This document shows, piece by piece, positions 6,435-35,765 of a stretch of 40,762 nucleotides of DNA. The position numbers and the translations under genes are program-made. The DNA is taken from NCBI GenBank assembly GCA_030156225.1, contig JASGMW010000005.1, positions 1 to 40,762 on the forward strand, read 5' to 3'. Position 1 is the stretch's first letter, and each line of letters begins with the position of its first letter. The notes beneath the pieces were generated by a model. It did not search any database and had not been told where the DNA came from. It was given only the letters and a program-made list of their open reading frames with translations. The DNA comes from Methanofollis sp. Lineage in GTDB: Archaea > Halobacteriota > Methanomicrobia > Methanomicrobiales > Methanofollaceae.

Positions 6435-7610
6435 ATGAAATACATCGTTGTGCTCGGGGACGGCATGGCCGACGAGCCCCTTGAGGAACTCGGCGGCAAA
6501 ACGCCTCTCGAATATGCAGATACGCCCAGTATGGATCAGGTTGCGCGGGAAGGAGCATGCGGCCTTCTGCGGACGGTGAAAGACATATACGAGCCCGGCA
6601 GCGACGTCGCAAACCTCTCGGTCCTGGGCTACGACCCGGGCACCTGCTATACGGGCAGGGGGCCCCTCGAAGCCGCCAGCATGGGCATCGACCTCACACC
6701 CGCAGACTACGCCTACCGCTTCAATCTGGTCACGATGCACGGCGGCGTGATGGAGGACTTCAACGCCGGGCACATCACGAGCGAGGAGGGGGCCGCCCTC
6801 ATCGCCTCGCTGCAGGGGACGGTCCCGGGCGTCACGTTCCACCCCGGCATCTCGTACCGGAACCTGATGGTGGTCGGAGGCGGGCAGGGCGCAACGACGA
6901 CCCCGCCCCACGATATCGTCGGGCAGGAGACGACGCCGTACCTGCCCGAAGGCCCGGACGCCTCTCTGCTCCGCCGGTGCATGGATGCGGCCGGGACGGC
7001 CTTTGCCGACCACCCGACAAACCGGGCGCGCATCGCCGCAGGGAACCTTCCCGCCACGACGATCTGGCCGTGGAGCGGAGGAAAACGACCGTCCATTCAG
7101 TCGTTCCGCGACCGCTGGGGACGTGACGGGGGGATGATCTCCGCGGTCGACCTCCTCAACGGCATCGCGCGCTACGCCGGCATGGACGTGATCCATGTGC
7201 CCGGGGCCACCGGGTTCCTGGACACCGACTATGGGGCGAAGGCCCGCTACGCTCTCGAAGCGATAAAACGCCTCGACTTCGTCTATGTGCACGTCGAGGC
7301 GCCTGACGAGGCCGGGCATATGGGAAGCGTCAGAGAAAAGGTGCGGGCGATTGAGGGGGTGGACGGCATCGTCGGCACGATCCTCGATCAGTTCGACGGG
7401 ACGGTCGCCGTCCTCCCGGACCATCCGACCCCCATCAGGCTGAAGACCCATACCCGCGAGCCCGTCCCCTTCGCGATCCGCGGCAGAGCGCGGGACGGGA
7501 CCGCCGCGTATTCCGAGCGGGCGGCGGCGAAAGGCGCCTTCGGTCTGGTGGAAGGGCCCGAGTTTCTCCCCCTCCTCTTCGGAAAGAGACCTTTCGACCG
7601 GCAGGAATAA
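6435..7610 (+). CDS. apgM: Archaeal 2,3-bisphosphoglycerate-independent phosphoglycerate mutase
   Basis: MKYIVVLGDGMADEPLEELGGKTPLEYADTPSMDQVAREGACGLLRTV and VEAPDEAGHMGSVREKV...VLPDHPTPI metalloenzyme motifs. Confidence 0.93.
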   Translation: MKYIVVLGDGMADEPLEELGGKTPLEYADTPSMDQVAREGACGLLRTVKDIYEPGSDVANLSVLGYDPGTCYTGRGPLEAASMGIDLTPADYAYRFNLVTMHGGVMEDFNAGHITSEEGAALIASLQGTVPGVTFHPGISYRNLMVVGGGQGATTTPPHDIVGQETTPYLPEGPDASLLRRCMDAAGTAFADHPTNRARIAAGNLPATTIWPWSGGKRPSIQSFRDRWGRDGGMISAVDLLNGIARYAGMDVIHVPGATGFLDTDYGAKARYALEAIKRLDFVYVHVEAPDEAGHMGSVREKVRAIEGVDGIVGTILDQFDGTVAVLPDHPTPIRLKTHTREPVPFAIRGRARDGTAAYSERAAAKGAFGLVEGPEFLPLLFGKRPFDRQE

Positions 7611-7747
7611 AACCCTGCCAACATATTTTTCAACATCAGTGCGGCATCAGCACCCTGCTTCATCACGGATCAGTGGGGGTAACTCTCATCATCTGCCGCC
7701 TGTAGAGTATACTTATAATATCTTCTCTGTGGAATAATGTTCTGACC

Positions 7748-7768
7748 GTCCCGGCCCTGTCGGGACGC
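7748..7768 (+). promoter_or_regulatory. Perfect inverted repeat / hairpin in the 5' leader of the fusion gene at 7787
   Basis: CGTCCCG-gccctgt-CGGGACG (7-bp arms), ending 18 nt before the ATG; TATA-like tatacttataatatc lies upstream near 7707-7722. Confidence 0.5.
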
Positions 7769-7786
7769 ATGACCTATTGAAGACCC

Positions 7787-9322
7787 ATGACATCGTCCAA
7801 CATCACCGGAAAACTCCGGGAACTGGAGAAGGAGGTCGGCGCCCTCTCGCCGATGCAGAAGATCCTCCTCGGCACCGACGGCTCGGTGACCACCCTTCTT
7901 GAGAACGCGCTGGGCTGCGAGGTGACCGTGCACACGCTCTCTCAGGAGGTGGTCTCTGCCGATGAGCACACGGCGGCGTCCCTCGGGATCTGTCCGGGAG
8001 AGCAGGTCAACCACCGTATCGTGACCCTGAACGAGAGCGGGAGCGGGAAGGCGCTCCTGTACGCAGTGTCGGACACCCCGCTCTCCCGGCTTGATCCCTC
8101 GTTCAGAGACGACCTGATGCGGGCCGACATCCCGATCGGACGGATCATGCGGATGCACCGGATCGAGGCGCGCCGTGAGATCGACGACGTGAGGATGTGC
8201 CGGGCCGGCTCCGCCATCAGCGACGTCTTCGGCATTTTCCGCCATGAACCGCTGCTCTCCCGTCGGTACCGGATCATCACCGGCGGAGAACCCCTGATCG
8301 CCATCAGGGAGACCTTCCCGTACTGCAATTTCACCGACGAGGCCGGGGTGATCGTGGAGGCGACGGCACGGATCCACATGGCCCTCATCGACATGAATGG
8401 GAGTTCAGGGCGGGTCGACGGCGGGATCGGCCTCTCGGTCGAGGATCCGGCCGTCGTGGTCGCGGCGAAGCGAAGCGGCGAACTCTCGGTCAGAGGGGAG
8501 GGAGAGAGCGCGGAACGGGTGAAAAAGACGGCGGAAACGATCCTTGCCGCGCTGGGCGTCCGGGGAGGCGCCGAGATCACGGTGCACCGTACCTACCCCG
8601 GGCATATCGGTCTCGGAAGCGGCACCCAGCTCGACCTTGCCATCGCCCGCGCCCTCTGCGAACTCTACCGGCCCATGCCCGTCAGGGAGATCGCGGCGAT
8701 CGCCGGGAGGGGCGGGACGTCGGGGATCGGGACCGCCGTATTCGAGTCGGGCGGCTTCATCCTCGACGGCGGACACAGTTTCGGTCCATCAGGAGAAAAG
8801 TCCGACTTCAGGCCGTCGTCGGCATCGGGCGGGGTGAGGCCCGCGCCGGTGCTCTTCAGACACCCGTTCCCCGAGGACTGGCAGATCCTGCTGGCCACTC
8901 CTGACGTTCAGGCCGGCGCAAGCGGGAGGGCCGAGGCCGACATCTTCAGGCGGCACTGCCCGGTGCCCGTCGGCGACGTGCAGGCACTCTGTCACGCCGT
9001 CCTGATGCAGATGCTGCCGGGGATCGTTGAAAAAGACCTCGACCTCTTCGGGACGGCGGTGAACGCAATCCAGGGTCTCGGGCTCAAACGGGTCGAACAC
9101 AGCCTTCAGCCCCCCCTCATCCGCGACCTCGTCGCCGCCCTGGGGACCACCGATGCCGCAGGCGTCGGACTGAGCTCCTTCGGGCCGACGGTCTACGCGA
9201 TCGGCGACACCGGCATGCAGGACGCCCTCAGTGCCGCAAAGGGGGCGATGGCGGAGACCGGAGGAACGATGGTCCTCACCCGCGCCCGGAACCGCGGGGC
9301 TGAGGTCAGGGCATCTTTCTGA
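7787..9322 (+). CDS. Fusion: N-terminal chorismate-lyase-like (DUF98) domain + C-terminal beta-ribofuranosylaminobenzene 5'-phosphate synthase (GHMP kinase-like)
   Basis: N-term ...LSRRYRIITGGEPLIAIRETFPYCNF resembles the chorismate lyase-like family; C-term VEATARIHMALIDMNGSSGRVDGGIGLSVEDP... GHIGLGSGTQLDLAIARAL ... RGGTSGIGTAVFESGGFILDGGHS is beta-RFAP synthase-like. Confidence 0.85.
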   Translation: MTSSNITGKLRELEKEVGALSPMQKILLGTDGSVTTLLENALGCEVTVHTLSQEVVSADEHTAASLGICPGEQVNHRIVTLNESGSGKALLYAVSDTPLSRLDPSFRDDLMRADIPIGRIMRMHRIEARREIDDVRMCRAGSAISDVFGIFRHEPLLSRRYRIITGGEPLIAIRETFPYCNFTDEAGVIVEATARIHMALIDMNGSSGRVDGGIGLSVEDPAVVVAAKRSGELSVRGEGESAERVKKTAETILAALGVRGGAEITVHRTYPGHIGLGSGTQLDLAIARALCELYRPMPVREIAAIAGRGGTSGIGTAVFESGGFILDGGHSFGPSGEKSDFRPSSASGGVRPAPVLFRHPFPEDWQILLATPDVQAGASGRAEADIFRRHCPVPVGDVQALCHAVLMQMLPGIVEKDLDLFGTAVNAIQGLGLKRVEHSLQPPLIRDLVAALGTTDAAGVGLSSFGPTVYAIGDTGMQDALSAAKGAMAETGGTMVLTRARNRGAEVRASF

Positions 9323-10004: not shown

Positions 10005-11129
10005 ATGAAACGGGATCTGCTCATGTGGGACGAAACGCTGTTTCGAGACCCCGAAGTATTTGAAATCGATTACATCCCGGAGCAGTTCAACTACCGTGAA
10101 ACACAGATCCAGGAACTCGCCTTCCAGATCAAACCCGGTCTCCGGGGCGGTCGTCCCCTGAACACCATCTGCAAAGGACTTCCCGGCACCGGCAAGACGA
10201 CGAGCGTGCGCAAACTCTTCGTCCAGATCGAGGAGTCCACCAGAAAACTGATCCCGGTCTACATCAACTGTCAGATCGACAACACCAAGTTCGCAATCTT
10301 CGCCCAGATCTATCAGAAATTGTCTGGCCATCTCCCGCCAGCCTCAGGCACCTCGTTCAAGCAGATCTTCGACGCCGTCGCCCGCATCCTCCAGAAGGAG
10401 GAGACCGTCCTCCTCGTCGCCCTCGACGACGCCAACTACCTGCTGTACGAGAACGAGATCAACAAGGTCCTCTACGCACTCCTGAGGGCGCACGAGGCCT
10501 ACCCGGGCACGCGGATCGGGGTGATCACCATTATCTCAGATCTGAGCGTCGACCTCTCGCGCGAGGTGGACCCGCGGGTCGCATCGGTCTTTCGGCCGAC
10601 CGAGATCTATTTTTCACCCTATTCCGCCGGGGAAATCAGGCACATCCTCACCGAGCGGGCGCTCGCCGGCCTGTATCCGGGCGTGCTCTCCGATACGATG
10701 CTCGATCTCGTCGTCGAGCAGACGATGAAGAGCGGCGACCTGCGGGTCGGGATCGACCTGCTGAAGCGAGCCACGCTGGACGCCGAAAAGGATGCCCGCC
10801 GGCGGATCGAGGAGGAGGACATCTGCCGCGCATACCAGGTCTCAAAGTACCTTCACCTCACCTTCACCCTGAGAACCCTGAAGACCGAGGAGAAAAACCT
10901 GCTCGGGACGATCGCCGAAATGAGTGCCGGCGGCGAGGAAATGAATGCCGGCGAGGTTTATAAACGGGTAAAACAGAAAGAAAAACTCGGGTACACCCGA
11001 TTCTACGAGATCGTCAAGAAGCTGGACGCAATGCGGCTGATCAACCTCGATTACAGGGAGGGAAAGGGGAGAACGCGCGTGATTACCCTGCGATACGAGC
11101 CGCAGCGCGTCCTCGAACTGCTGACCTGA
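10005..11129 (+). CDS. cdc6: Orc1/Cdc6-type DNA replication initiator (AAA+ with winged helix)
   Basis: NTICKGLPGTGKTTSVRKLF (Walker A), VLLVALDDANYLLYE (Walker B variant), DPRVASVFRPTEIYFSPYSAGEIRHIL, C-terminal winged helix. Confidence 0.92.
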   Translation: MKRDLLMWDETLFRDPEVFEIDYIPEQFNYRETQIQELAFQIKPGLRGGRPLNTICKGLPGTGKTTSVRKLFVQIEESTRKLIPVYINCQIDNTKFAIFAQIYQKLSGHLPPASGTSFKQIFDAVARILQKEETVLLVALDDANYLLYENEINKVLYALLRAHEAYPGTRIGVITIISDLSVDLSREVDPRVASVFRPTEIYFSPYSAGEIRHILTERALAGLYPGVLSDTMLDLVVEQTMKSGDLRVGIDLLKRATLDAEKDARRRIEEEDICRAYQVSKYLHLTFTLRTLKTEEKNLLGTIAEMSAGGEEMNAGEVYKRVKQKEKLGYTRFYEIVKKLDAMRLINLDYREGKGRTRVITLRYEPQRVLELLT

Positions 11130-26484: not shown

Positions 26485-29400
26485 TTGGAAAGCCCGAAAC
26501 TGAAGCTGCGCAATCAGAATATCGCACGGCTGCGTCAGGCCCGGGGCACGTTCGGCGACGGTGTCCTGCTGATCGATCAGGAGGGTGCGGTCATCTACGT
26601 CAACGAAGTGTTCGGGGAGTGCTGCGGCCTGTCGTCCGACGCGTTGATCGGAAGAGATGCCCTTGAAGTGATCGAGTCATATATCGCTCCCTGGCTCCAG
26701 GACCCCGACGCCTTTATAGAAACGATCAGGGCCATCTATCGGGAAGAACGCGACGCGAGCGGACTGGAGTGGGAGGTCGGGGGAGGAAAAAACCGGCGGA
26801 TCGTCTACTCCAGTGAGAACATCGGGCACGGACCTCTGAAAGATGTCAGAATCGACCTGTTCAAAAATCTGTCCCGGACAAAAGAGACCATAAGCGCCTC
26901 TCGGATGTCCGGACAACGCAACGAAGCCCGCGGCCTTCCCGTGTGCAGGACTGCCCCGGACCTGGCGATCGTCTCTGCGGACGAACCGTTCCGGGGATTG
27001 TTCGGGACCCGGACGGGCACGCGCGCGATCACCGATATCATATCTCCGTCCGTCGCAGAGCATCTCAGAAAAAACCTCGCCACGCTCACCCCTTCAAGCC
27101 CTGAGATCCGCATCCCAGAAAAAAGAGGAGAGTGGAGGGTGCATGGCCTTTTCGACGACGAAAGCGTTCTTTCGGAACTGGAATGGTCGTGGCAGGCCAG
27201 GAGCGGCGGGAACGTCTGCCCTGCAGCGACGGAAAACAGCGCACGGCGCGAGATCGGATGCCTCAGAACGCTGCTGCACCTCCTGCAGGACGACGAAGCA
27301 TCAGAACAGGCGCTCCTCTCCGACGCGGCCGCCATGATCTGCAGAAACGTCCCGTGGATCAGGGGGGTCGAGATTCGGACAGAGGGAGGTGTCGCCGTCT
27401 CGGCGGGCACCGGAGAAGGAGAACAGGTGGCGTTCCCGCTCGAAAATGGGAACCGGTACGGAGAGGTGATCTTCCATGTCGCCGGAGAACCGGGCGATCC
27501 CGACGCGCAGGCCGACTTCCTGAACGCAATCGCCGTGTGTGCGTCAGGATATTTCAGAAGAAAAACCGCAAATGCAGAAACAGAATCTCTGGAACAGTCG
27601 TACCTGACCCTGTTCGAGACCACCGGGACGGTTTCCTTCGTTCTTGATCCCGCCATCAGGGTGATCATGGCAAACCGGGAATTTCAACGATTTTTCAACC
27701 TGAAACACGAAGATCTCCAGGCCGGGATCGAATGGACGACCCTCACCTCAGAAGAAGACCGCTCCAGGATCAGAAGATACCACGAACTCAGGCGTACCGC
27801 ACCCGGCAGCGCCCCTTCAAACTATGAGTGCAGGGTCATCGCCGGGGACGGCACGCCGCGAGACGTGATCGTCAGCGTCTCCCTGATCCCGGGGATCGGC
27901 CGGTCGGTGATCTCTCTGCTCGATATAACGGCGAAAAAAGAGGCAGAATTCGAACTTCGAGAGAGCGAGTTGCGCTACCGTTTGATGACGGAGAATGCGA
28001 CCGACATCATATTCGCCATGGACTCCGACCTCACCTTCACCTATGTCAGCCCTTCCTTCGAACTGCTTACCGGGAGACCCGGGGCAGGCGTGATCGCCCA
28101 CCCGATCACCGAATTCATCAGCCCCGAATCGTCATCCCTCTTTTCAGACGCCGTGCAGGGGGTTTTCGCGCCGCGCAGCCCGGACGAGGCGGCGGCATCG
28201 CTGGCCCTTGAGGTGGAGACGATCCGCGCCGATGGGGAGCGGATCTGGATGGAGGTGCGGATCAACCCCCTCAGGGAAGGGGACGGAACCCGCGTCGGCC
28301 TGATGGGCGTGATGCGCGATATCAGCGAGAGAAAAAGTGCGGAGGAACGGGAGATCCGGTATGTCCGCGAACTTTCCTTCCTGTCCAGCGCCGCCATGGG
28401 CTTTGTCGAGCTCCCGTTCGAAGAGGAGATCTACCGGTTTATCAGCGATCATCTCTGTGATATCCTGGAAGAGACGCTCGTTTTTGTGGCGGATTACGAC
28501 GAGCTGGACGATACCCTCTCCTTGAGGGCGATCTCGGGTCTCGACGAGGACGAAAACCCGCGCCTGTATTCTCTTTCACGGAGCATCACCGGGATAAAAA
28601 TCACTCTCCCGAAAGACGTGATGACCGGGTTGAGAGGGGGAATGCTGATCCCGCTGGAGGAAGAAACGGCGTCCCGCATCCTTGCCGGACCTGCATGGTC
28701 GCTTGCCCGTGCATTTGCCGGAGGCGGCCAGGCGCGGTATGCGGCGATCGGGATCGTGCGGGGCGCATCCCTCTTCGGGTGCGTGATCCTCGTCCAGAAA
28801 AACGACGTCCCGACAGACAACGTCTCAACAATCGAGACCTTTGTCTCCCTCTCTTCGATCGCACTCCAGCGGCGGCAGCTCGAAACCGAACTGGAATCCG
28901 CGCGCGCCCACCTTCAGCACATCCTCTCCTCAAGTCCGGTCGTGATCTACTCCTCAGAGATGCCGCGGGACGGAGAGAGCGGCATGGGCCCGATCACGTT
29001 CACAACCGACAACATCACGGCGCTGCTCGGATATGAGCCGCAGGAGGTGATCTATGACGCCTCGTTCTGGGCGACCAGAATACACCCGTCGGACCGTCAG
29101 CGCATCCTTGAAGAGGAGTTGTCCGCACTCCCTGACCTGGGACGTTTGACACTGGAATACCGGATCCAGCACAAGGACGGGAAGTACCGGTGGCTCCACA
29201 CCGAGGTGAAACTCCTGCGGGACGAGGACAGGAACCCGGTCGAGGTGATCGGTTCTGCGATCGACATCTCGGAAAGGAAGCGGATCGAGGAGGCGCTCAG
29301 GGTGATGGACAGCGCGATCACCTCGTCCATCAACGCGATCATCATTACCGATCTTGATGGCGACCTCGTCTTTGCCAATCATTCTGCCCTGAGGCTCTGG

Positions 29401-31647
29401 AAATACGACGACATCAAAAAAGTGATCGGCAAACCGCTTGATCGCTTCTGGCAACCCAGGAAAACGGTCGTCAGGGTTCTGGAGAGGATCGAACAGGACG
29501 GGAGCTGGATAGGGGAACTCATCGGCAAAAAGAGGGGAGGACGAAAATTCCATGCGAGCGTTGCGGCGAGCATGGTCACCGACGAGGAGAACGATCCCCT
29601 CTGTATCATGTTTTCTTTCGTCGACATCACCGAAAAGGTCGAGATCGAAGAGGAACTGGCGCGGTACCGCGGCCATCTGGAAGAACTGGTGATCGAGCGT
29701 ACTGAGAAACTGACCCGCGCAAATGAGATGCTCAGTGCCGAGGTCGCCGAGCGGAGGCGTGCGGAAGAGGCGATCCGGACCCTCAGCACCTTCAGGGAGA
29801 GTATCATCGAAAACGCCACCATGCTGCTCGCCGTCACTGATATGGACGGTGTTGTGACGGTCTGGAACCGCGCCGCCGAAGAGATCAGCGGGTTCGGCAG
29901 GGATGAGGTGGTAGGCAGCGCCGAGATCTGGAACGCCGTCGAACCTGAAGATGAACGCGGCCAGAATCAGGTGACGGGCTTGCTGGTCGAGCTCCGGAAA
30001 AAAGAGCATATCGAGAACTTCGAGGCGCATATCAGGGCAAAAAACGGCGAGGTCAGGACCCTTCAGTGGGATGCATGCGTCCTCGAGGACGTCGGCGTGG
30101 TCCACATCGCACAGGACGTCACCATCAGAAGACGGATGGAGAAGAGGGTCAGGGAAAGCGAGGCGCGCTACCGCGCCGTCGTCGAGGACCAGACCGAGTG
30201 GATCTGCCGCTTCGGGCCCGACCTGCGGTTGATATTCAGGAACGCTGCGTTCTGTCGGTCTTTGGGTCCCGGACAGATCTCACGGCCAGCGATATCGTTC
30301 AGGGAGATCATACCAGAAGGCTTCGACGACCTGCTGGCCTCGCTTGAGAACGGGTCGCTGCAGGGCAGGCAGAATGTCAGGATCGAAGGGCGTGTCGCAC
30401 GCGACGACCGGAAAGAGCGCTGGCACCAGTGGGACATCCGCGCCATCCCGGCAGCTGACGGTTCGATCGCCGAGTATCAGGCGATCGGAAGAGACATCAC
30501 CGAGATGAGGATAGCGGAAGAAGAGTTTGTCAGGACGGAAAAACTTCTCTCTCTCTCAGAACTTGCCGGCGGCATCGCCCATGACTTCAACAACGCCCTG
30601 ACCTCGATCATGGGCAACCTGAACCTTGCAAAGATGAAAGTTGCGCCGGACGATTTCATTTACCGGCGTCTGAGCGAGGCTGAGGCCGCCACGGCCCGGG
30701 CAGGAGCACTCACAAAGCAACTCTTCAGTTTCTCAGACCGGTCTGCGCCGGAAAAAGAGACGGTCGATATGGCAGATATCATTCATGAGGCGGCCTCCTC
30801 CTCGCTGCGCGGCTCGAAGAGCAAGTGCAGGCTCGATCTCGAAGCCGCGCCGATGCCCGTCCACGTCGACACCACCCGGATCCTCCAGGTGCTCCAGGCC
30901 CTGATCATCAACGCCGATCAGGCGATGCCCGACGGAGGCGTGGTGACGGTCAGGGCGGCATGTATCGAAGTGAGAGGGGACGACCCCGTTCCCCTCCCGG
31001 GAGGTCTGTATGTGAGGGTCACGGTCCACGACCACGGCACCGGCATCCTGCCCGAGCACATGGGCAGGATCTTCGATCCCTACTTCACCACCAGGGAGCA
31101 CGGCACCGGTCTCGGCCTCGCCATGGCCCTGCCGATCATCAAGAACCACGGAGGCTGGCTGGACGCCGCGTCCACGCCGGGAGAGGGGACTGACTTCTTC
31201 CTTTATCTGCCGGCATCGACAAAATCTATAGGTGTGAAGACCGGGCCGGAAACAGCTCCTTCGGTCGGGATGGGAACGATTCTCCTGATGGACGACGAGG
31301 CGGGAATCCTTGACACCACAACAAATATCCTCCAATATCTCGGCTATACGGTCACGACGGCGCAGGACGGTGAAGAGGCGGCGATGCGTTTTGAAGAGAC
31401 GCTGAAAGAGGGAAAACCCTTCGACGCCGTGATCCTCGACCTGACCGTGCCCGGGAAAATGGGAGGGCTCGCCACCCTGGAGCGCCTCAAAGAGATGGAC
31501 CCTCAGGTGAAAGTCGTGGTGTCCAGTGGTTACCTGAACGATCCGATCATCAGGCACCCGGAGAGGTACGGGTTCGCCGCGAGCATCTGCAAACCCTATA
31601 TGGTCCATGAACTGGGCAGGGTGCTCCGTGAAGTGCTCTCCGACTGA
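26485..31647 (+). CDS. Giant multi-PAS (plus GAF-like) hybrid histidine kinase with C-terminal receiver domain (1720 aa)
   Basis: Several PAS/PAC segments (e.g. LRYRLMTENATDIIFAMDSDLTFTYVSPSFELLTG; WLHTEVKLLRDEDRNPVEVIGSAIDISERKRIEE), GAF-like middle, H-box LAGGIAHDFNNALTSIMGN, N-box QALIINADQAMPDGG, G-boxes DHGTGILPEHMGRIFDPYFTT and GTGLGLAM, receiver ILLMDDEAGIL...FDAVILDLTVPGKMGG...ASICKPY. Confidence 0.93.
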   Translation: MESPKLKLRNQNIARLRQARGTFGDGVLLIDQEGAVIYVNEVFGECCGLSSDALIGRDALEVIESYIAPWLQDPDAFIETIRAIYREERDASGLEWEVGGGKNRRIVYSSENIGHGPLKDVRIDLFKNLSRTKETISASRMSGQRNEARGLPVCRTAPDLAIVSADEPFRGLFGTRTGTRAITDIISPSVAEHLRKNLATLTPSSPEIRIPEKRGEWRVHGLFDDESVLSELEWSWQARSGGNVCPAATENSARREIGCLRTLLHLLQDDEASEQALLSDAAAMICRNVPWIRGVEIRTEGGVAVSAGTGEGEQVAFPLENGNRYGEVIFHVAGEPGDPDAQADFLNAIAVCASGYFRRKTANAETESLEQSYLTLFETTGTVSFVLDPAIRVIMANREFQRFFNLKHEDLQAGIEWTTLTSEEDRSRIRRYHELRRTAPGSAPSNYECRVIAGDGTPRDVIVSVSLIPGIGRSVISLLDITAKKEAEFELRESELRYRLMTENATDIIFAMDSDLTFTYVSPSFELLTGRPGAGVIAHPITEFISPESSSLFSDAVQGVFAPRSPDEAAASLALEVETIRADGERIWMEVRINPLREGDGTRVGLMGVMRDISERKSAEEREIRYVRELSFLSSAAMGFVELPFEEEIYRFISDHLCDILEETLVFVADYDELDDTLSLRAISGLDEDENPRLYSLSRSITGIKITLPKDVMTGLRGGMLIPLEEETASRILAGPAWSLARAFAGGGQARYAAIGIVRGASLFGCVILVQKNDVPTDNVSTIETFVSLSSIALQRRQLETELESARAHLQHILSSSPVVIYSSEMPRDGESGMGPITFTTDNITALLGYEPQEVIYDASFWATRIHPSDRQRILEEELSALPDLGRLTLEYRIQHKDGKYRWLHTEVKLLRDEDRNPVEVIGSAIDISERKRIEEALRVMDSAITSSINAIIITDLDGDLVFANHSALRLWKYDDIKKVIGKPLDRFWQPRKTVVRVLERIEQDGSWIGELIGKKRGGRKFHASVAASMVTDEENDPLCIMFSFVDITEKVEIEEELARYRGHLEELVIERTEKLTRANEMLSAEVAERRRAEEAIRTLSTFRESIIENATMLLAVTDMDGVVTVWNRAAEEISGFGRDEVVGSAEIWNAVEPEDERGQNQVTGLLVELRKKEHIENFEAHIRAKNGEVRTLQWDACVLEDVGVVHIAQDVTIRRRMEKRVRESEARYRAVVEDQTEWICRFGPDLRLIFRNAAFCRSLGPGQISRPAISFREIIPEGFDDLLASLENGSLQGRQNVRIEGRVARDDRKERWHQWDIRAIPAADGSIAEYQAIGRDITEMRIAEEEFVRTEKLLSLSELAGGIAHDFNNALTSIMGNLNLAKMKVAPDDFIYRRLSEAEAATARAGALTKQLFSFSDRSAPEKETVDMADIIHEAASSSLRGSKSKCRLDLEAAPMPVHVDTTRILQVLQALIINADQAMPDGGVVTVRAACIEVRGDDPVPLPGGLYVRVTVHDHGTGILPEHMGRIFDPYFTTREHGTGLGLAMALPIIKNHGGWLDAASTPGEGTDFFLYLPASTKSIGVKTGPETAPSVGMGTILLMDDEAGILDTTTNILQYLGYTVTTAQDGEEAAMRFEETLKEGKPFDAVILDLTVPGKMGGLATLERLKEMDPQVKVVVSSGYLNDPIIRHPERYGFAASICKPYMVHELGRVLREVLSD

Positions 31648-31699: not shown

Positions 31700-33481
31700 A
31701 TGACAGAAGTACCATCTGACGATCCCCGGAAAGAGGCGTTTGCTCTGTATGAAGACGGCAGGTACCGGGAGTCGATCGGGGTGTGCGCCCGGATGCCGGA
31801 TGACGCGTCTCTTGCGGTCCTCGTCGCCAAAAACCTCCTGGCGCTCGGCGAGTACGAGGAAGCCGAAGCGCAGGTGCTTGATCTCCTGGTCAAAATGCCG
31901 GAGTCCTCCTATCTTCACAGTTTTCTCGGGCGCGTGCTCGCCGCCAGGGGAGATGACCGGGCGACGGCGGAGTATGCAGAGGCGATCCAGCTCGATCCGA
32001 AAAACGAAGAGGCGCTCCGAGCCTACGCAGCCTATTTCACCGGCCCGGACGACCACCGCTCGGCCATCCCCCTCCTGTACGCACTTGCCCGTCTTTCAAG
32101 AAAGCGCGACGACGCCATCGCCCTGATGCGCCGCCTGATCGAGGCGGGCGAGGGAGAAGAAGCGCTTCTGGTCTACGAAGAACTGCTCGGGAGTGCAGGC
32201 GCAGAGGGGGAATATATCGACGCCCTGCTGGTGGCCGGCCGTCACCGCGAGGCGGCGACGGCGTCCATCCAGGCCTTCCGGGAGAAACGGGACCCTGCTT
32301 TTTTGCGCCAGTACCTGGCCGCCGTGACCGCGTTCGACAGAAAAGGCGCATTGAAACTTTTTCCCCATTTCCTGAAGGACTGCCCTGACGACGACCTCGC
32401 CTTCGATCATGTTCTCCTCCTGAAATCGGAGGGGATGTGCCGGGAAGCCCTTGAAGAGTGCGAAACGCTCATCGCCAGAAACCCGCACCCGATCTACAAA
32501 CTGGTGGCCTGCGAACTGATCGCCGCTGCCGGAAGGAGCGATCTTGCCAGACAGGGGTACGAGGGTCTGATTGCAGAAGAGTTGCATCGGATGGACGATC
32601 CGGAAAGCCTCGGCATGGTGATCGAGGCATACGAAGAATTTTTGCGAAAGACGCTCAGGCCTTCGACCGTCCCGCCGTGCTACCTGACCACGGTCTCGTC
32701 GGACACGAACGTGGTCAGTCTCACCAGGACCGGACTTTTTTATGCCTCGTTCGGGCAGACGACAGAGGCTGCGGAGTGGCTGTACCGTGCATACCGGCTC
32801 GATTACCTTGACGGCGGCATCGAATACGCCCGTTATCTTGCCGGGCAGGGAGAGATGCGGGAGTGCGAGAAGGTGCTCATGCACATCCTCGCCAATATCA
32901 AACAGAGTGCCGACCTGGTGCGGGTGGCCGACGCGGTCATCGATGCCGGCACCGACTGGAAGGGTATGCGCAGGTTGATCGATGCGCTCATCGACCGCTT
33001 CTCCGCCGCCGTCCGAACGCTTGGCCCGGGCGGGATCGAGGTCTTTGCGCGCATCTATCTCTGTGCGGCAGAGGAGGCGTTTTCAATCGGGGATTATGCC
33101 AGGTGCAAGGAGTGCTCTCTCCGCGGCCTCGACATGACGCGGAAGAACCTGAACGAGTTCTTCGACCTGATCAGACGCTGCAAGGAGGCGACCGTCGCCG
33201 AGAGACCGGTGCTGCCCTTCCGGACCGCGGCCTCCGGGCGGCCTGCCGATGCAGAGGCGGAACCTGATCTCGGACTGGACGAGCGGGAAGAGGCGCTCGT
33301 CGCATTTTTACGGCAGCACCGCGAGAGCAACGAGGAGGAACTCCGCAAGGTGCTCGACACGCGCCGGGTAAGCGGGATGATAAACCGTCTGATCAAAAAA
33401 GCCTCAGACGCCGGCGTCTCTCTCATCGAGAAAAAGGGGATGGGAGAGCACGGCGAGGTCTATCTCTACTGTGGGAAGTGA
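31700..33481 (+). CDS. TPR-repeat protein with C-terminal winged-helix-like domain
   Basis: TPR-like repeats (ALYEDGRYRESIGVCARM; ALGEYEEAEAQVLDLLVKMPESSYLHSFLGRVLAARGDDRATAEYAEAIQLDPKNEEAL); C-term LDEREEALVAFLRQHRESNEEELRKVLDTRRVSGMINRLIKKASDAGVSLIEKKGMGEHGEVYLY looks like a wHTH. Confidence 0.8.
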   Translation: MTEVPSDDPRKEAFALYEDGRYRESIGVCARMPDDASLAVLVAKNLLALGEYEEAEAQVLDLLVKMPESSYLHSFLGRVLAARGDDRATAEYAEAIQLDPKNEEALRAYAAYFTGPDDHRSAIPLLYALARLSRKRDDAIALMRRLIEAGEGEEALLVYEELLGSAGAEGEYIDALLVAGRHREAATASIQAFREKRDPAFLRQYLAAVTAFDRKGALKLFPHFLKDCPDDDLAFDHVLLLKSEGMCREALEECETLIARNPHPIYKLVACELIAAAGRSDLARQGYEGLIAEELHRMDDPESLGMVIEAYEEFLRKTLRPSTVPPCYLTTVSSDTNVVSLTRTGLFYASFGQTTEAAEWLYRAYRLDYLDGGIEYARYLAGQGEMRECEKVLMHILANIKQSADLVRVADAVIDAGTDWKGMRRLIDALIDRFSAAVRTLGPGGIEVFARIYLCAAEEAFSIGDYARCKECSLRGLDMTRKNLNEFFDLIRRCKEATVAERPVLPFRTAASGRPADAEAEPDLGLDEREEALVAFLRQHRESNEEELRKVLDTRRVSGMINRLIKKASDAGVSLIEKKGMGEHGEVYLYCGK

Positions 33482-33485
33482 ATGG

Positions 33486-34763
33486 ATGGACGAAAAGAAA
33501 GCAGAAAGCATCGGCATCGTCAACGCCCTCAGGCGTGGAACCGTTCCGGCGTCAGGACTCGAACGACTTGCCGTCGGCCTTGCGGTGGAAGAGCGGGTGA
33601 TCGGCGGGCAGCTCGACTATGCGGCCTCAGGCGGGGCCGACGTGAAGTTTGTCCGCGGCGAATACGGGAGCGGAAAGACATTTCTCGTCGCGCGCGCCCT
33701 TGAGATCGCCAGGAGCAAGGGGTTTGCGACGGCCCACGTGATGATCTCGGCGGACACGCCCCTGCACAAACTCAGCGCCCTCTATTATCGTATCCTCTCC
33801 TCCCTGCAGACGGCAGAGCACGAACACGCCCTCAAGGAGATCGTGGACAACTGGATCTTCTCCATCGAGGAGCGGATCATCGAGGTGGAAGGCGCGTCCG
33901 AGGATGACGGGGCACTCGAGGCCGGGACGGTGGCGCGGATCGAGACGGCGCTCGCCGACATCTCCACGGTGAACCCGGCCCTTGCGGCCGCATTGCGCGT
34001 CTATTATACGGCGAACAACGCCGGAGACTATCCCCTCGCCCAGGCGGCGCTCGGGTGGCTCTCAGGCGAGCCCCATGTCGGCCGCGACTTCAGGCGGGCG
34101 GCCGGCGTGAAGGGGGAGGTGGACGACACATCAGCCTTTGTCTTTCTCCGGGGAATCGTGCGGATCGTCAGGGCGGCGGGCTACGCGGGGATCGCCGTCG
34201 CCCTCGACGAGGTGGAGACGGTGCAGGCGCTGCCCTCGAACCTCCGCGAACGGGGATACAACAACATCCGCCAGATCGTCGACGCCGTCGACCGGGGGGA
34301 GATGCCCCATTGTTATTTCCTCTTCACGGGAACGCCCGCATTCTTCGAGGGCTCGAAAGGGATCAAGTCGCTCCCGCCCCTGTACGATCGCCTGCAGGTC
34401 GTCGGCACCGACGGCGTCGCAAACCCGTTGCAGGCGCAGATCGTGCTCAGGCCCTTCGACATGGACAAACTCGAAGCGGCGGCCCTGAACGTCTCGGGCA
34501 TCTATGCCGACGCCGCCTCGCCGGTGGACAGGAGCCGGATCTCCCATCGGTTCATCAGGTCCATGATCGACCGGATCACCTCGCGGTTCGGCGGGCGCGT
34601 CGACGTCATCCCCAGGGTCTTCCTGCGGGAGTTCGTGGACATCCTGGACAAGTGCGAACTCTATCCTGACTACGATCCGTCCTCGGCCTATGCCTTCGAC
34701 GCCGGAAAGGTGAAGGAAGACCTGCGCGAAGAGGAAGAGGCGTTCCTTGAAGTCGAGTTCTGA
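33486..34763 (+). CDS. BrxD-like P-loop ATPase (BREX-type, DUF2791 family)
   Basis: IVNALRRGTVPASGLERLAVGL, FVRGEYGSGKTFLVARAL (Walker A), GIAVALDEVETVQALPSNLRERGYNNIRQIVDAVDRG (Walker B), YFLFTGTPAFFEGSKGIKSLPPLYDRLQV: characteristic of BrxD/DUF2791 proteins. Confidence 0.85.
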   Translation: MDEKKAESIGIVNALRRGTVPASGLERLAVGLAVEERVIGGQLDYAASGGADVKFVRGEYGSGKTFLVARALEIARSKGFATAHVMISADTPLHKLSALYYRILSSLQTAEHEHALKEIVDNWIFSIEERIIEVEGASEDDGALEAGTVARIETALADISTVNPALAAALRVYYTANNAGDYPLAQAALGWLSGEPHVGRDFRRAAGVKGEVDDTSAFVFLRGIVRIVRAAGYAGIAVALDEVETVQALPSNLRERGYNNIRQIVDAVDRGEMPHCYFLFTGTPAFFEGSKGIKSLPPLYDRLQVVGTDGVANPLQAQIVLRPFDMDKLEAAALNVSGIYADAASPVDRSRISHRFIRSMIDRITSRFGGRVDVIPRVFLREFVDILDKCELYPDYDPSSAYAFDAGKVKEDLREEEEAFLEVEF

Positions 34764-34802
34764 AGGGAGGGCGTTTATAACCCGCAGCCCCCATCTCTTC
34801 TG

Positions 34803-35765
34803 ATGACCGGGGTCGTGAACAAACATACCTATCTTTCCGGGATCGCCGACGGCGACCTGATCGACGATCTCTTTCTTCTCCAGAAACGTGAAGTGAAGCG
34901 GAAGAAGGATGGAAATCCCTATATTTTCGCCGTCGTTGCCGACCGCTCGGGCACCGCCCTCTGCAACGTCTGGGGATCGGGAGCTGCCGGAGAGACGGTG
35001 CCCGAGATCTGCGCCGCGTTCGAGACGGGCCGGGTCTACCGCATCGCAGGCCGGGTTTCACTCTTCAACGGCTCCCTCCAGATCAGCGTGAACGAGGGCG
35101 TCGAATATCTCCGGCAGCCCGTCGCGGAATCAGAACTCGACCCGGCGGAGTTCGTCAGGGCGAACACCGACCCGGCCGATCTGAAATGCGGCATATGGGA
35201 GATGATCGCGGCGATCGGCGATCCCGCGCTCAGAGACGTGGTGCTGGAGGCGATCTCGGGTGCGGACGGATTTTTCGAGAAGCCGGCGGCGAAAGGGCGC
35301 CACCACGAGTACCCCGGTGGCCTTGCCGAGCACACTCTCGAAACGGCCAGGTTCGCGGCGGCCGAGTGCGACGCCCATTATGCAGAGTCGAACCGCGATC
35401 TGGTCGTGGCGGGTGCGCTCCTGCACGATATCGGGAAGGCGTTTGCGTTCGACCGTTCGGGGCTCTGCTTTGCGGCGCGGCCGGAGTACGATCTGATCGG
35501 GCACGTCAGCCTCGGCGTTACCTATCTGGAGCGGTTCAGGGATCGGCTCCCTGCTGATGTCTTCTCCCACCTCCTGCACATCGTCCAGGCGCACCACGGC
35601 CCCCACGGTGAGACGCCCTGCCAGACGCCCGAGGCATGGATGGTGCATATCGCCGACTTCGCAAGCGCCACCCTCAGGGAGGTGGCCGACGATCAGGCCG
35701 CCCTCGAACCGAACACGGGGACGCGAAACGGCAGAAAGTGCGGCGGGCCGGTGTGGCGGTTCTGA
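34803..35765 (+). CDS. OB-fold + HD-domain nuclease, YhaM-like 3'-5' exoribonuclease family
   Basis: N-terminal OB-like (VKRKKDGNPYIFAVVADRSGTALCNVWG), C-terminal HD motifs HEYPGGLAEHTLETARFAA...LVVAGALLHDIGKAFAF...QAHHGPHG; TATA-like tttataa near 34775 gives its own, possibly leaderless, promoter. Confidence 0.85.
   Translation: MTGVVNKHTYLSGIADGDLIDDLFLLQKREVKRKKDGNPYIFAVVADRSGTALCNVWGSGAAGETVPEICAAFETGRVYRIAGRVSLFNGSLQISVNEGVEYLRQPVAESELDPAEFVRANTDPADLKCGIWEMIAAIGDPALRDVVLEAISGADGFFEKPAAKGRHHEYPGGLAEHTLETARFAAAECDAHYAESNRDLVVAGALLHDIGKAFAFDRSGLCFAARPEYDLIGHVSLGVTYLERFRDRLPADVFSHLLHIVQAHHGPHGETPCQTPEAWMVHIADFASATLREVADDQAALEPNTGTRNGRKCGGPVWRF

What the first reader, a model, noticed from the sequence alone, without database searches (positions are those of the whole stretch)
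31700..35765. Orphan BrxD-like ATPase in a TPR/wHTH - BrxD - YhaM-like nuclease gene set with no BREX partners
Seen: three consecutive + strand genes encode a TPR protein ending in a winged-helix-like domain, a BrxD/DUF2791 P-loop ATPase (GEYGSGKT, ALDEVET) 4 nt downstream, and an OB+HD YhaM-like 3'-5' exonuclease 39 nt later. Known: BrxD is normally encoded in type 2-like BREX (Pgl) loci with PglX/PglZ/PglW/BrxHI; none is visible here. Inference: the BrxD-type ATPase may form a standalone module with the TPR/wHTH protein as sensor/adaptor and possibly the nuclease as effector, either defence-related or a domesticated housekeeping role in Methanomicrobia. Caveat: yhaM has its own TATA-like element near 34775, so it may be only a neighbour.
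Basis: partly seen in the sequence, partly recalled or inferred. Interest (0 to 1): 0.75.

Follow-up and report, generated by a model that had tools for sequence, protein, structure and literature searches.

The report
Methanogen TPR–BrxD–helicase machine, BREX-related
Three families of methane-making archaea carry, as ordinary chromosomal genes, an ATPase and a helicase of the kinds otherwise found in the BREX antiviral system, with the usual nuclease partner replaced by a repeat protein; this suggests that part of a defence machine became, or has a sibling that is, a standing cell machine.

Summary
In detail: 33486-34763 encodes a true BrxD-family ATPase (NCBIfam BREX_BrxD 424.6 bits, cut-off 350), 4 nt behind a TPR solenoid ending in a winged helix, with a YhaM-like gene 39 nt further on. 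The own genome has no other PF10923 gene and no PglZ. The TPR-BrxD pair is a fixed, vertically inherited operon in three families (98 of 159 genomes of the order), at the same chromosomal spot, with clean empty sites in relatives. YhaM is only a neighbour: absent where the pair is universal, present where the pair is absent. So this is a set related to BREX-2 PglZ-BrxD-BrxHI, with the PglZ body replaced by TPRs and without PglX, PglZ or BrxC. Best reading: a DNA-acting AAA+ loader/helicase machine, more likely housekeeping than mobile defence. Function untested.

The parts
31700..33481 (+). TPR alpha-solenoid protein with C-terminal winged helix (593 aa), first gene of the pair
   Evidence: TPR_19; A2 alignment; structure model
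33266..33478 (+). C-terminal winged-helix domain, homologous to the C-terminal wHTH of a type-2-like BREX PglZ (L122:4713-7244)
   Evidence: HMM E 3e-9, hhalign prob 97.8, E 7e-13, alignment A3
33486..34763 (+). BrxD-family (DUF2791/PF10923) ORC/Cdc6-like AAA+ ATPase, 425 aa
33657..33680 (+). Walker A, GEYGSGKT
   Evidence: translation; core residues invariant in 17 orthologs
34200..34220 (+). Walker B region, ALDEVET
   Evidence: translation; D and E invariant in 17 orthologs
34803..35765 (+). OB-fold + HD YhaM-like nuclease candidate: ancestral neighbour, not a partner
   Evidence: dissociated from the pair in both directions; empty-site synteny

Best explanation
The pair encodes two parts of a three-part DNA-acting machine whose third part, a BrxHI-family SF2 helicase, is encoded elsewhere in the same genome (G000 contig 66, 9168-11276, minus strand). 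Proposed mechanism: the TPR solenoid with its winged helix acts as DNA-binding adaptor or sensor and recruits the BrxD ATPase, taking the place of PglZ, whose C-terminal winged helix it shares. BrxD, an ORC/Cdc6-like AAA+ ATPase, then uses ATP to load or activate the BrxHI-family helicase on DNA. With no methyltransferase, no PglZ nuclease and no BrxC, the machine probably remodels or surveys DNA (repair, replication or transcription conflicts, silencing of foreign DNA) instead of cutting it. Shown: families, operon, helicase co-occurrence, wHTH homology, vertical inheritance, purifying selection. Inferred: physical complex, helicase loading, housekeeping role.
For: BrxD family membership. TPR gene directly upstream of brxD in every ortholog locus with sequence there. 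Helicase and pair mark the same genomes: 31/31 versus 0/30 with the independent L122 BrxHI query, 60/60 versus 0/334 in the phylum sample; in the order 95 of 99 genomes with either gene have both, the four exceptions being draft genomes. Joint loss: complete genome G383 lacks pair and helicase, with GT2 and hisD 24 bp apart, while six genus-mates keep both. The helicase is BrxHI-family (532 bits versus SngC 382) and separate from archaeal Lhr. BrxD's best fold matches are ORC/Cdc6, with BrxC also listed. BREX-2 loci have the same order PglZ-BrxD-BrxHI; one PglZ wHTH matches the TPR protein's wHTH. dN/dS of BrxD 0.06-0.11, like hisD 0.08-0.12. No plasmid copy of the TPR gene, while BREX-type brxD does occur on plasmids. 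The suggestion that BrxD loads BrxHI is from PMC12839542.
Against: No direct evidence of interaction or activity; complexes could not be modelled. The co-occurrence rests on few evolutionary events: the pair-bearing families could be one clade (AU p 0.57), so essentially one gain (or a few losses) plus one joint loss. The close wHTH match comes from one bacterial locus; the bulk of BREX-2 PglZ winged helices are not detectably similar. Helicase and pair were not adjacent in any locus read. The helicase's place relative to BrxHI and SngC in the tree is unresolved. Mirror-tree correlations are no stronger than with the control purF.
Confidence: 0.55

Rival explanations
1. A resident minimal antiviral system: TPR-wHTH senses invader DNA or protein and, through BrxD, fires the helicase against invading DNA, as in Shango (TerB-ATPase-helicase), but fixed in the core genome.
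For: The other full-length DUF2791 ATPase loci read here are BREX, Shango or other ATPase-helicase cassettes; BrxD and BrxHI are defence families.
Against: Universal in whole families at a constant locus among pyrG, guaA, hisC and hisD, not in a defence island, no plasmid copy of the TPR gene and no phage copy of BrxD, conservation like hisD; defence genes usually come and go.
Confidence: 0.27
2. A split STAND-like regulator: BrxD is a signalling ATPase controlling the TPR-wHTH protein as a transcription factor; the helicase is an independent core gene whose presence coincides by common descent.
For: Separate polypeptides with ATPase, TPR and winged helix recall ATPase-TPR-HTH regulators (own knowledge); the wHTH gives a weak match to the Sta1 regulator family (E 0.005); co-occurrence reflects few events.
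Against: BrxD relatives are consistently linked to SF2 helicases; joint loss of pair and helicase in G383.
Confidence: 0.12
3. The first reader's model with the YhaM-like nuclease as effector of the module.
For: Adjacent in the genus and near the pair in f6.
Against: YhaM absent from all f5 genomes sampled though the pair is universal there; present in f2 and f4 without the pair; the order GT2-YhaM without the pair is seen in f2 and f4.
Confidence: 0.03

Closest known systems
Type-2 BREX (Pgl) PglZ-BrxD-BrxHI cassette
   Same: BrxD of the same family (38-43% identity to most, 48% to the Anaerolineales one), a BrxHI-family helicase, and an upstream partner of BrxD ending in a winged helix that is homologous in at least one BREX locus (L122).
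   Different: No PglX, PglZ, PglW or BrxC nearby; PglZ body replaced by a TPR solenoid; helicase unlinked; core-genome, vertical. Type-2 BREX was not found in archaea in PMC12839542.
Shango (SngA TerB, SngB ATPase, SngC helicase)
   Same: Same logic: upstream partner, DUF2791 ATPase, SF2 helicase.
   Different: No TerB domains here; the ATPase scores 429 bits as BrxD and 160 as SngB; the helicase scores higher as BrxHI than as SngC; Shango ATPases form a separate clade. True Shango loci occur separately in some relatives.
Archaeal Lhr helicase
   Same: Related SF2 helicase with a WH_Lhr-like domain.
   Different: Lhr (about 900-1000 aa) is a separate gene present in the same genomes and falls outside the BrxD-associated helicases.

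Membership tests
BrxD (NF033438/PF10923) | Score above the equivalog cut-off, intact Walker A and B | tested here: met
   424.6 bits versus cut-off 350; motifs conserved
BrxD (NF033438/PF10923) | ORC/Cdc6-like AAA+ fold | tested here: inconclusive
   Best Foldseek PDB matches are ORC/Cdc6 chains, BrxC also listed, but no E below 0.001 and TM about 0.35; model pLDDT 81
Type-2 BREX | PglZ encoded in the locus or genome | tested here: not met
   No PF08665 in the own genome; sporadic and unrelated to the pair in relatives
Type-2 BREX | PglX methyltransferase, BrxC/PglY and PglW near brxD | tested here: not met
   Window ORFs and flanks of the ortholog loci show other, mostly metabolic genes; BrxC would also have shown as PF10923; PglX and PglW not searched by profile genome-wide
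Type-2 BREX | BrxHI helicase linked to brxD | tested here: not met
   BrxHI-family helicase present but on another contig (C66 versus C46); far apart in complete relatives too, such as G002 and G020
BrxHI helicase family | Best PADLOC match BrxHI over full length | tested here: met
   532 bits, positions 5-682 of 698; SngC 382
Shango | SngA with TerB domains next to SngB and SngC | tested here: not met
   Upstream partner is TPR-wHTH without TerB match; no adjacent helicase
YhaM 3'-5' exoribonuclease | Score above equivalog cut-off | tested here: not met
   82.9 bits versus cut-off 460
Any antiviral defence system | Experimental protection against viruses or plasmids | not testable with these tools
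   Needs genetics

The most novel reading that the evidence does not exclude
A BREX-2-type cassette (PglZ-wHTH, BrxD, BrxHI) was captured once by an ancestor of these methanogens, its nuclease body exchanged for a TPR solenoid on the same winged-helix adaptor, and the result fixed as a chromosomal AAA+/helicase machine for DNA maintenance: a defence-to-housekeeping conversion, or else the housekeeping sibling from which the defence cassette arose.
Probability: 0.35. Interest if true: 0.82.

Novelty: new variant of a known kind. Interest (0 to 1): 0.62.

Why it matters
The role of BrxD and BrxHI in BREX is unknown. A stripped version without methyltransferase, PglZ or BrxC, kept by purifying selection in whole families, isolates that ATPase-helicase core and makes its function testable. 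The exchange between PglZ and TPRs on a shared winged helix suggests that the winged helix is the joint between BrxD and its partner. It also warns that automatic annotation of these genes as 'BREX system ATP-binding protein' is misleading for these methanogens.

Tried and rejected
YhaM as partner: rejected by distribution. A BREX locus elsewhere in the genome: no PglZ. Shango membership: rejected. Homology of the wHTH to the TerB-C end of SngA: no support (hhalign E 0.29). Homology of the wHTH to the bulk of BREX-2 PglZ C-termini: no significant match (E 0.086), a partial one with the Virgibacillus PglZ-position protein (prob 62). Mirror-tree test: not informative beyond vertical descent. PDB sequence search with BrxD: nothing useful. 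TPR model in Foldseek: only generic TPR superhelices such as Ski3, NatA and OGT at low TM. Literature: no paper found that describes this set; PMC12839542 does not mention TPR partners, but only open-licence papers were searchable.

Full report
Observation. BrxD passes the NCBIfam equivalog cut-off (424.6 versus 350) and scores 434 bits with PF10923 and 429 with PADLOC BrxD, against 160 for SngB. The TPR protein is modelled as an alpha-solenoid (residues 9-497), a low-confidence linker (505-520) and a winged helix (528-590), mean pLDDT 86.7. The YhaM-like protein has HD and OB domains but is well below the YhaM cut-off.

Distribution of the pair. The own genome (100 contigs, 88% complete) has only this PF10923 gene. 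Among 60 relatives, all 11 genus-mates and all sampled members of families f5 (Methanoregulaceae, by records identical to named ones) and f6 (Methanocorpusculum, Methanocalculus) have the ortholog; f2, f3 and f4 do not (names). In all 159 genomes of the order at 85% completeness or more, 98 have it. The TPR gene lies directly upstream in every ortholog locus that holds the sequence, and its winged helix was found in the phylum sample only in the 60 pair-bearing genomes, apart from three weak hits (sets compared). The named scan of prokaryotes returned Methanomicrobiales first, then one Anaerolineales locus at 48%, then bacterial BREX-type BrxD at 38-43%. The window's genus is not named by the tools; Methanofollis is my guess by exclusion.

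Locus history. In all six families the gene order CDP-alcohol transferase, small kinase, hisC, argD, guaA, pyrG, thioesterase is kept, followed in most by PfpI and GT2 and then, sooner or later, hisD. The pair sits directly after GT2 in f5 and f6, and at the same place in the own genus, where a multi-PAS histidine kinase stands in for GT2. In f2 and f4 GT2 is followed directly by YhaM. In the complete genome G383 (f5) GT2 and hisD are 24 bp apart, while its genus-mate G364 has the pair between them. So the pair is a clean two-gene unit, inherited vertically. A tree of four flanking proteins does not reject a single clade of pair-bearing families (AU p 0.57), so one gain, or a few losses, explains the pattern.

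YhaM. Present in f1, f4, f6 and most of f2; absent from all ten f5 genomes sampled. It is dissociated from the pair both ways and evolves faster (dN/dS 0.16-0.28 against 0.06-0.11 for BrxD). It is a neighbour.

The missing helicase. In BREX-2 and Shango the DUF2791 ATPase is followed by an SF2 helicase; here none is adjacent. A search with the BrxHI of the Anaerolineales locus found, in exactly the 31 pair-bearing relatives, an unlinked helicase of about 700-780 aa at 299-392 bits; the 30 pair-less relatives had only Lhr-type helicases at 250 bits or less, or a Shango helicase in one (277). With a model of the methanogen helicase, the 60 pair-bearing genomes of the phylum sample score 562 bits or more and all 334 others 514 or less, the closest being two f12 genomes with their own BrxD-helicase cassette. 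In the order, 95 genomes have both, 3 incomplete drafts only BrxD, and 1 draft only the helicase. G383 lacks both. The own-genome copy (contig 66, 9168-11276, minus) has intact helicase motifs, scores 532 bits as PADLOC BrxHI over its full length and 382 as SngC, forms one clade with the other methanogen copies and is distinct from Lhr. It too lies among conserved housekeeping genes such as purF. The Fisher value should not be taken at face value, since genomes are related: the independent events are about two.

The winged helix. In the Anaerolineales locus L122 the order is PglX-like fragment (by position and eye), BrxC/PglY-like, PglZ, NERD-BrxD fusion, BrxHI. PglZ (BREX_PglZ_2 177.8 bits, cut-off 200; PF08665 above cut-off) ends in a winged helix that matches the TPR protein's: HMM E 3e-9, hhalign probability 97.8 and E 7e-13, with the shared stretch LGTRRVSG. 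PMC12839542 states that type-2 PglZ carries a C-terminal three-stranded wHTH. Thus the methanogen TPR protein stands in the position of PglZ and shares its winged helix but has another body. The direction of this exchange is not shown. The BrxD tree puts the methanogen clade (support 99) beside BREX-2 BrxD plus L122, with the Virgibacillus BREX-like BrxD outside, which fits descent from a BREX-like cassette, though long branches are flagged.

Mechanism. BrxD's best fold matches are ORC/Cdc6 proteins, with BrxC also listed (weak E-values); it keeps Walker motifs and an invariant arginine (R302 of P0001) that may be the arginine finger PMC12839542 describes for BrxD (my assignment). That paper suggests that BrxD loads BrxHI. 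I propose the same here, with TPR-wHTH as DNA-binding adaptor. With no PglZ, PglX or BrxC at hand the outcome is more likely remodelling or surveillance of DNA than restriction. Core-genome residence, constant locus and conservation equal to hisD favour housekeeping; family membership favours defence. Sequence alone cannot settle this.

Verdict. The finding is real and better than stated: a conserved, scattered three-gene set related to the type-2 BREX PglZ-BrxD-BrxHI cassette; it is not a BREX system, not Shango, and does not include YhaM.

Noticed in passing
L031, L032, L033, L034, L168, L175, L177 (relatives): Shango-type loci (TerB-domain protein, DUF2791 ATPase, SngC-type helicase) occur sporadically in the same families and elsewhere in the phylum, separate from the core pair.
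   Followed up: partly
L122:1-11402: Type-2-like BREX locus in an Anaerolineales MAG with a NERD-like domain fused to the N-terminus of BrxD (7254-9266) and a PglZ with a distinctive winged helix.
   Followed up: yes
L166:167-4322 (minus strand), L167:349-4517: Cassette of an unnamed 258-aa protein (no Pfam match), DUF2791 ATPase and SF2 helicase in family f12 of the phylum; possibly an undescribed system.
   Followed up: no
L171:8148-12884, L172:8278-15432, L173:6448-11483, L174:859-3917: Archaeal cassette with a protein of about 290 aa, two DUF2791-like ATPases in tandem and (where the contig reaches) an SF2 helicase; looks like another BrxD-type system.
   Followed up: no
window 26485-31647: 1720-aa multi-PAS histidine kinase with receiver domain, found before the pair in the own genus, where other families have a GT2 glycosyltransferase.
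   Followed up: partly
L111, L120: MAGs labelled Methanospirillum that carry the pair; the labels may be wrong, or the pair extends there.
   Followed up: no
L220:8557-10635 (G383): Clean loss of the pair in one complete genome whose genus-mates keep it; the helicase is gone too.
   Followed up: yes
window 10005-11129: A 374-aa Cdc6/ORC-like ATPase gene (by eye), not part of the finding.
   Followed up: no
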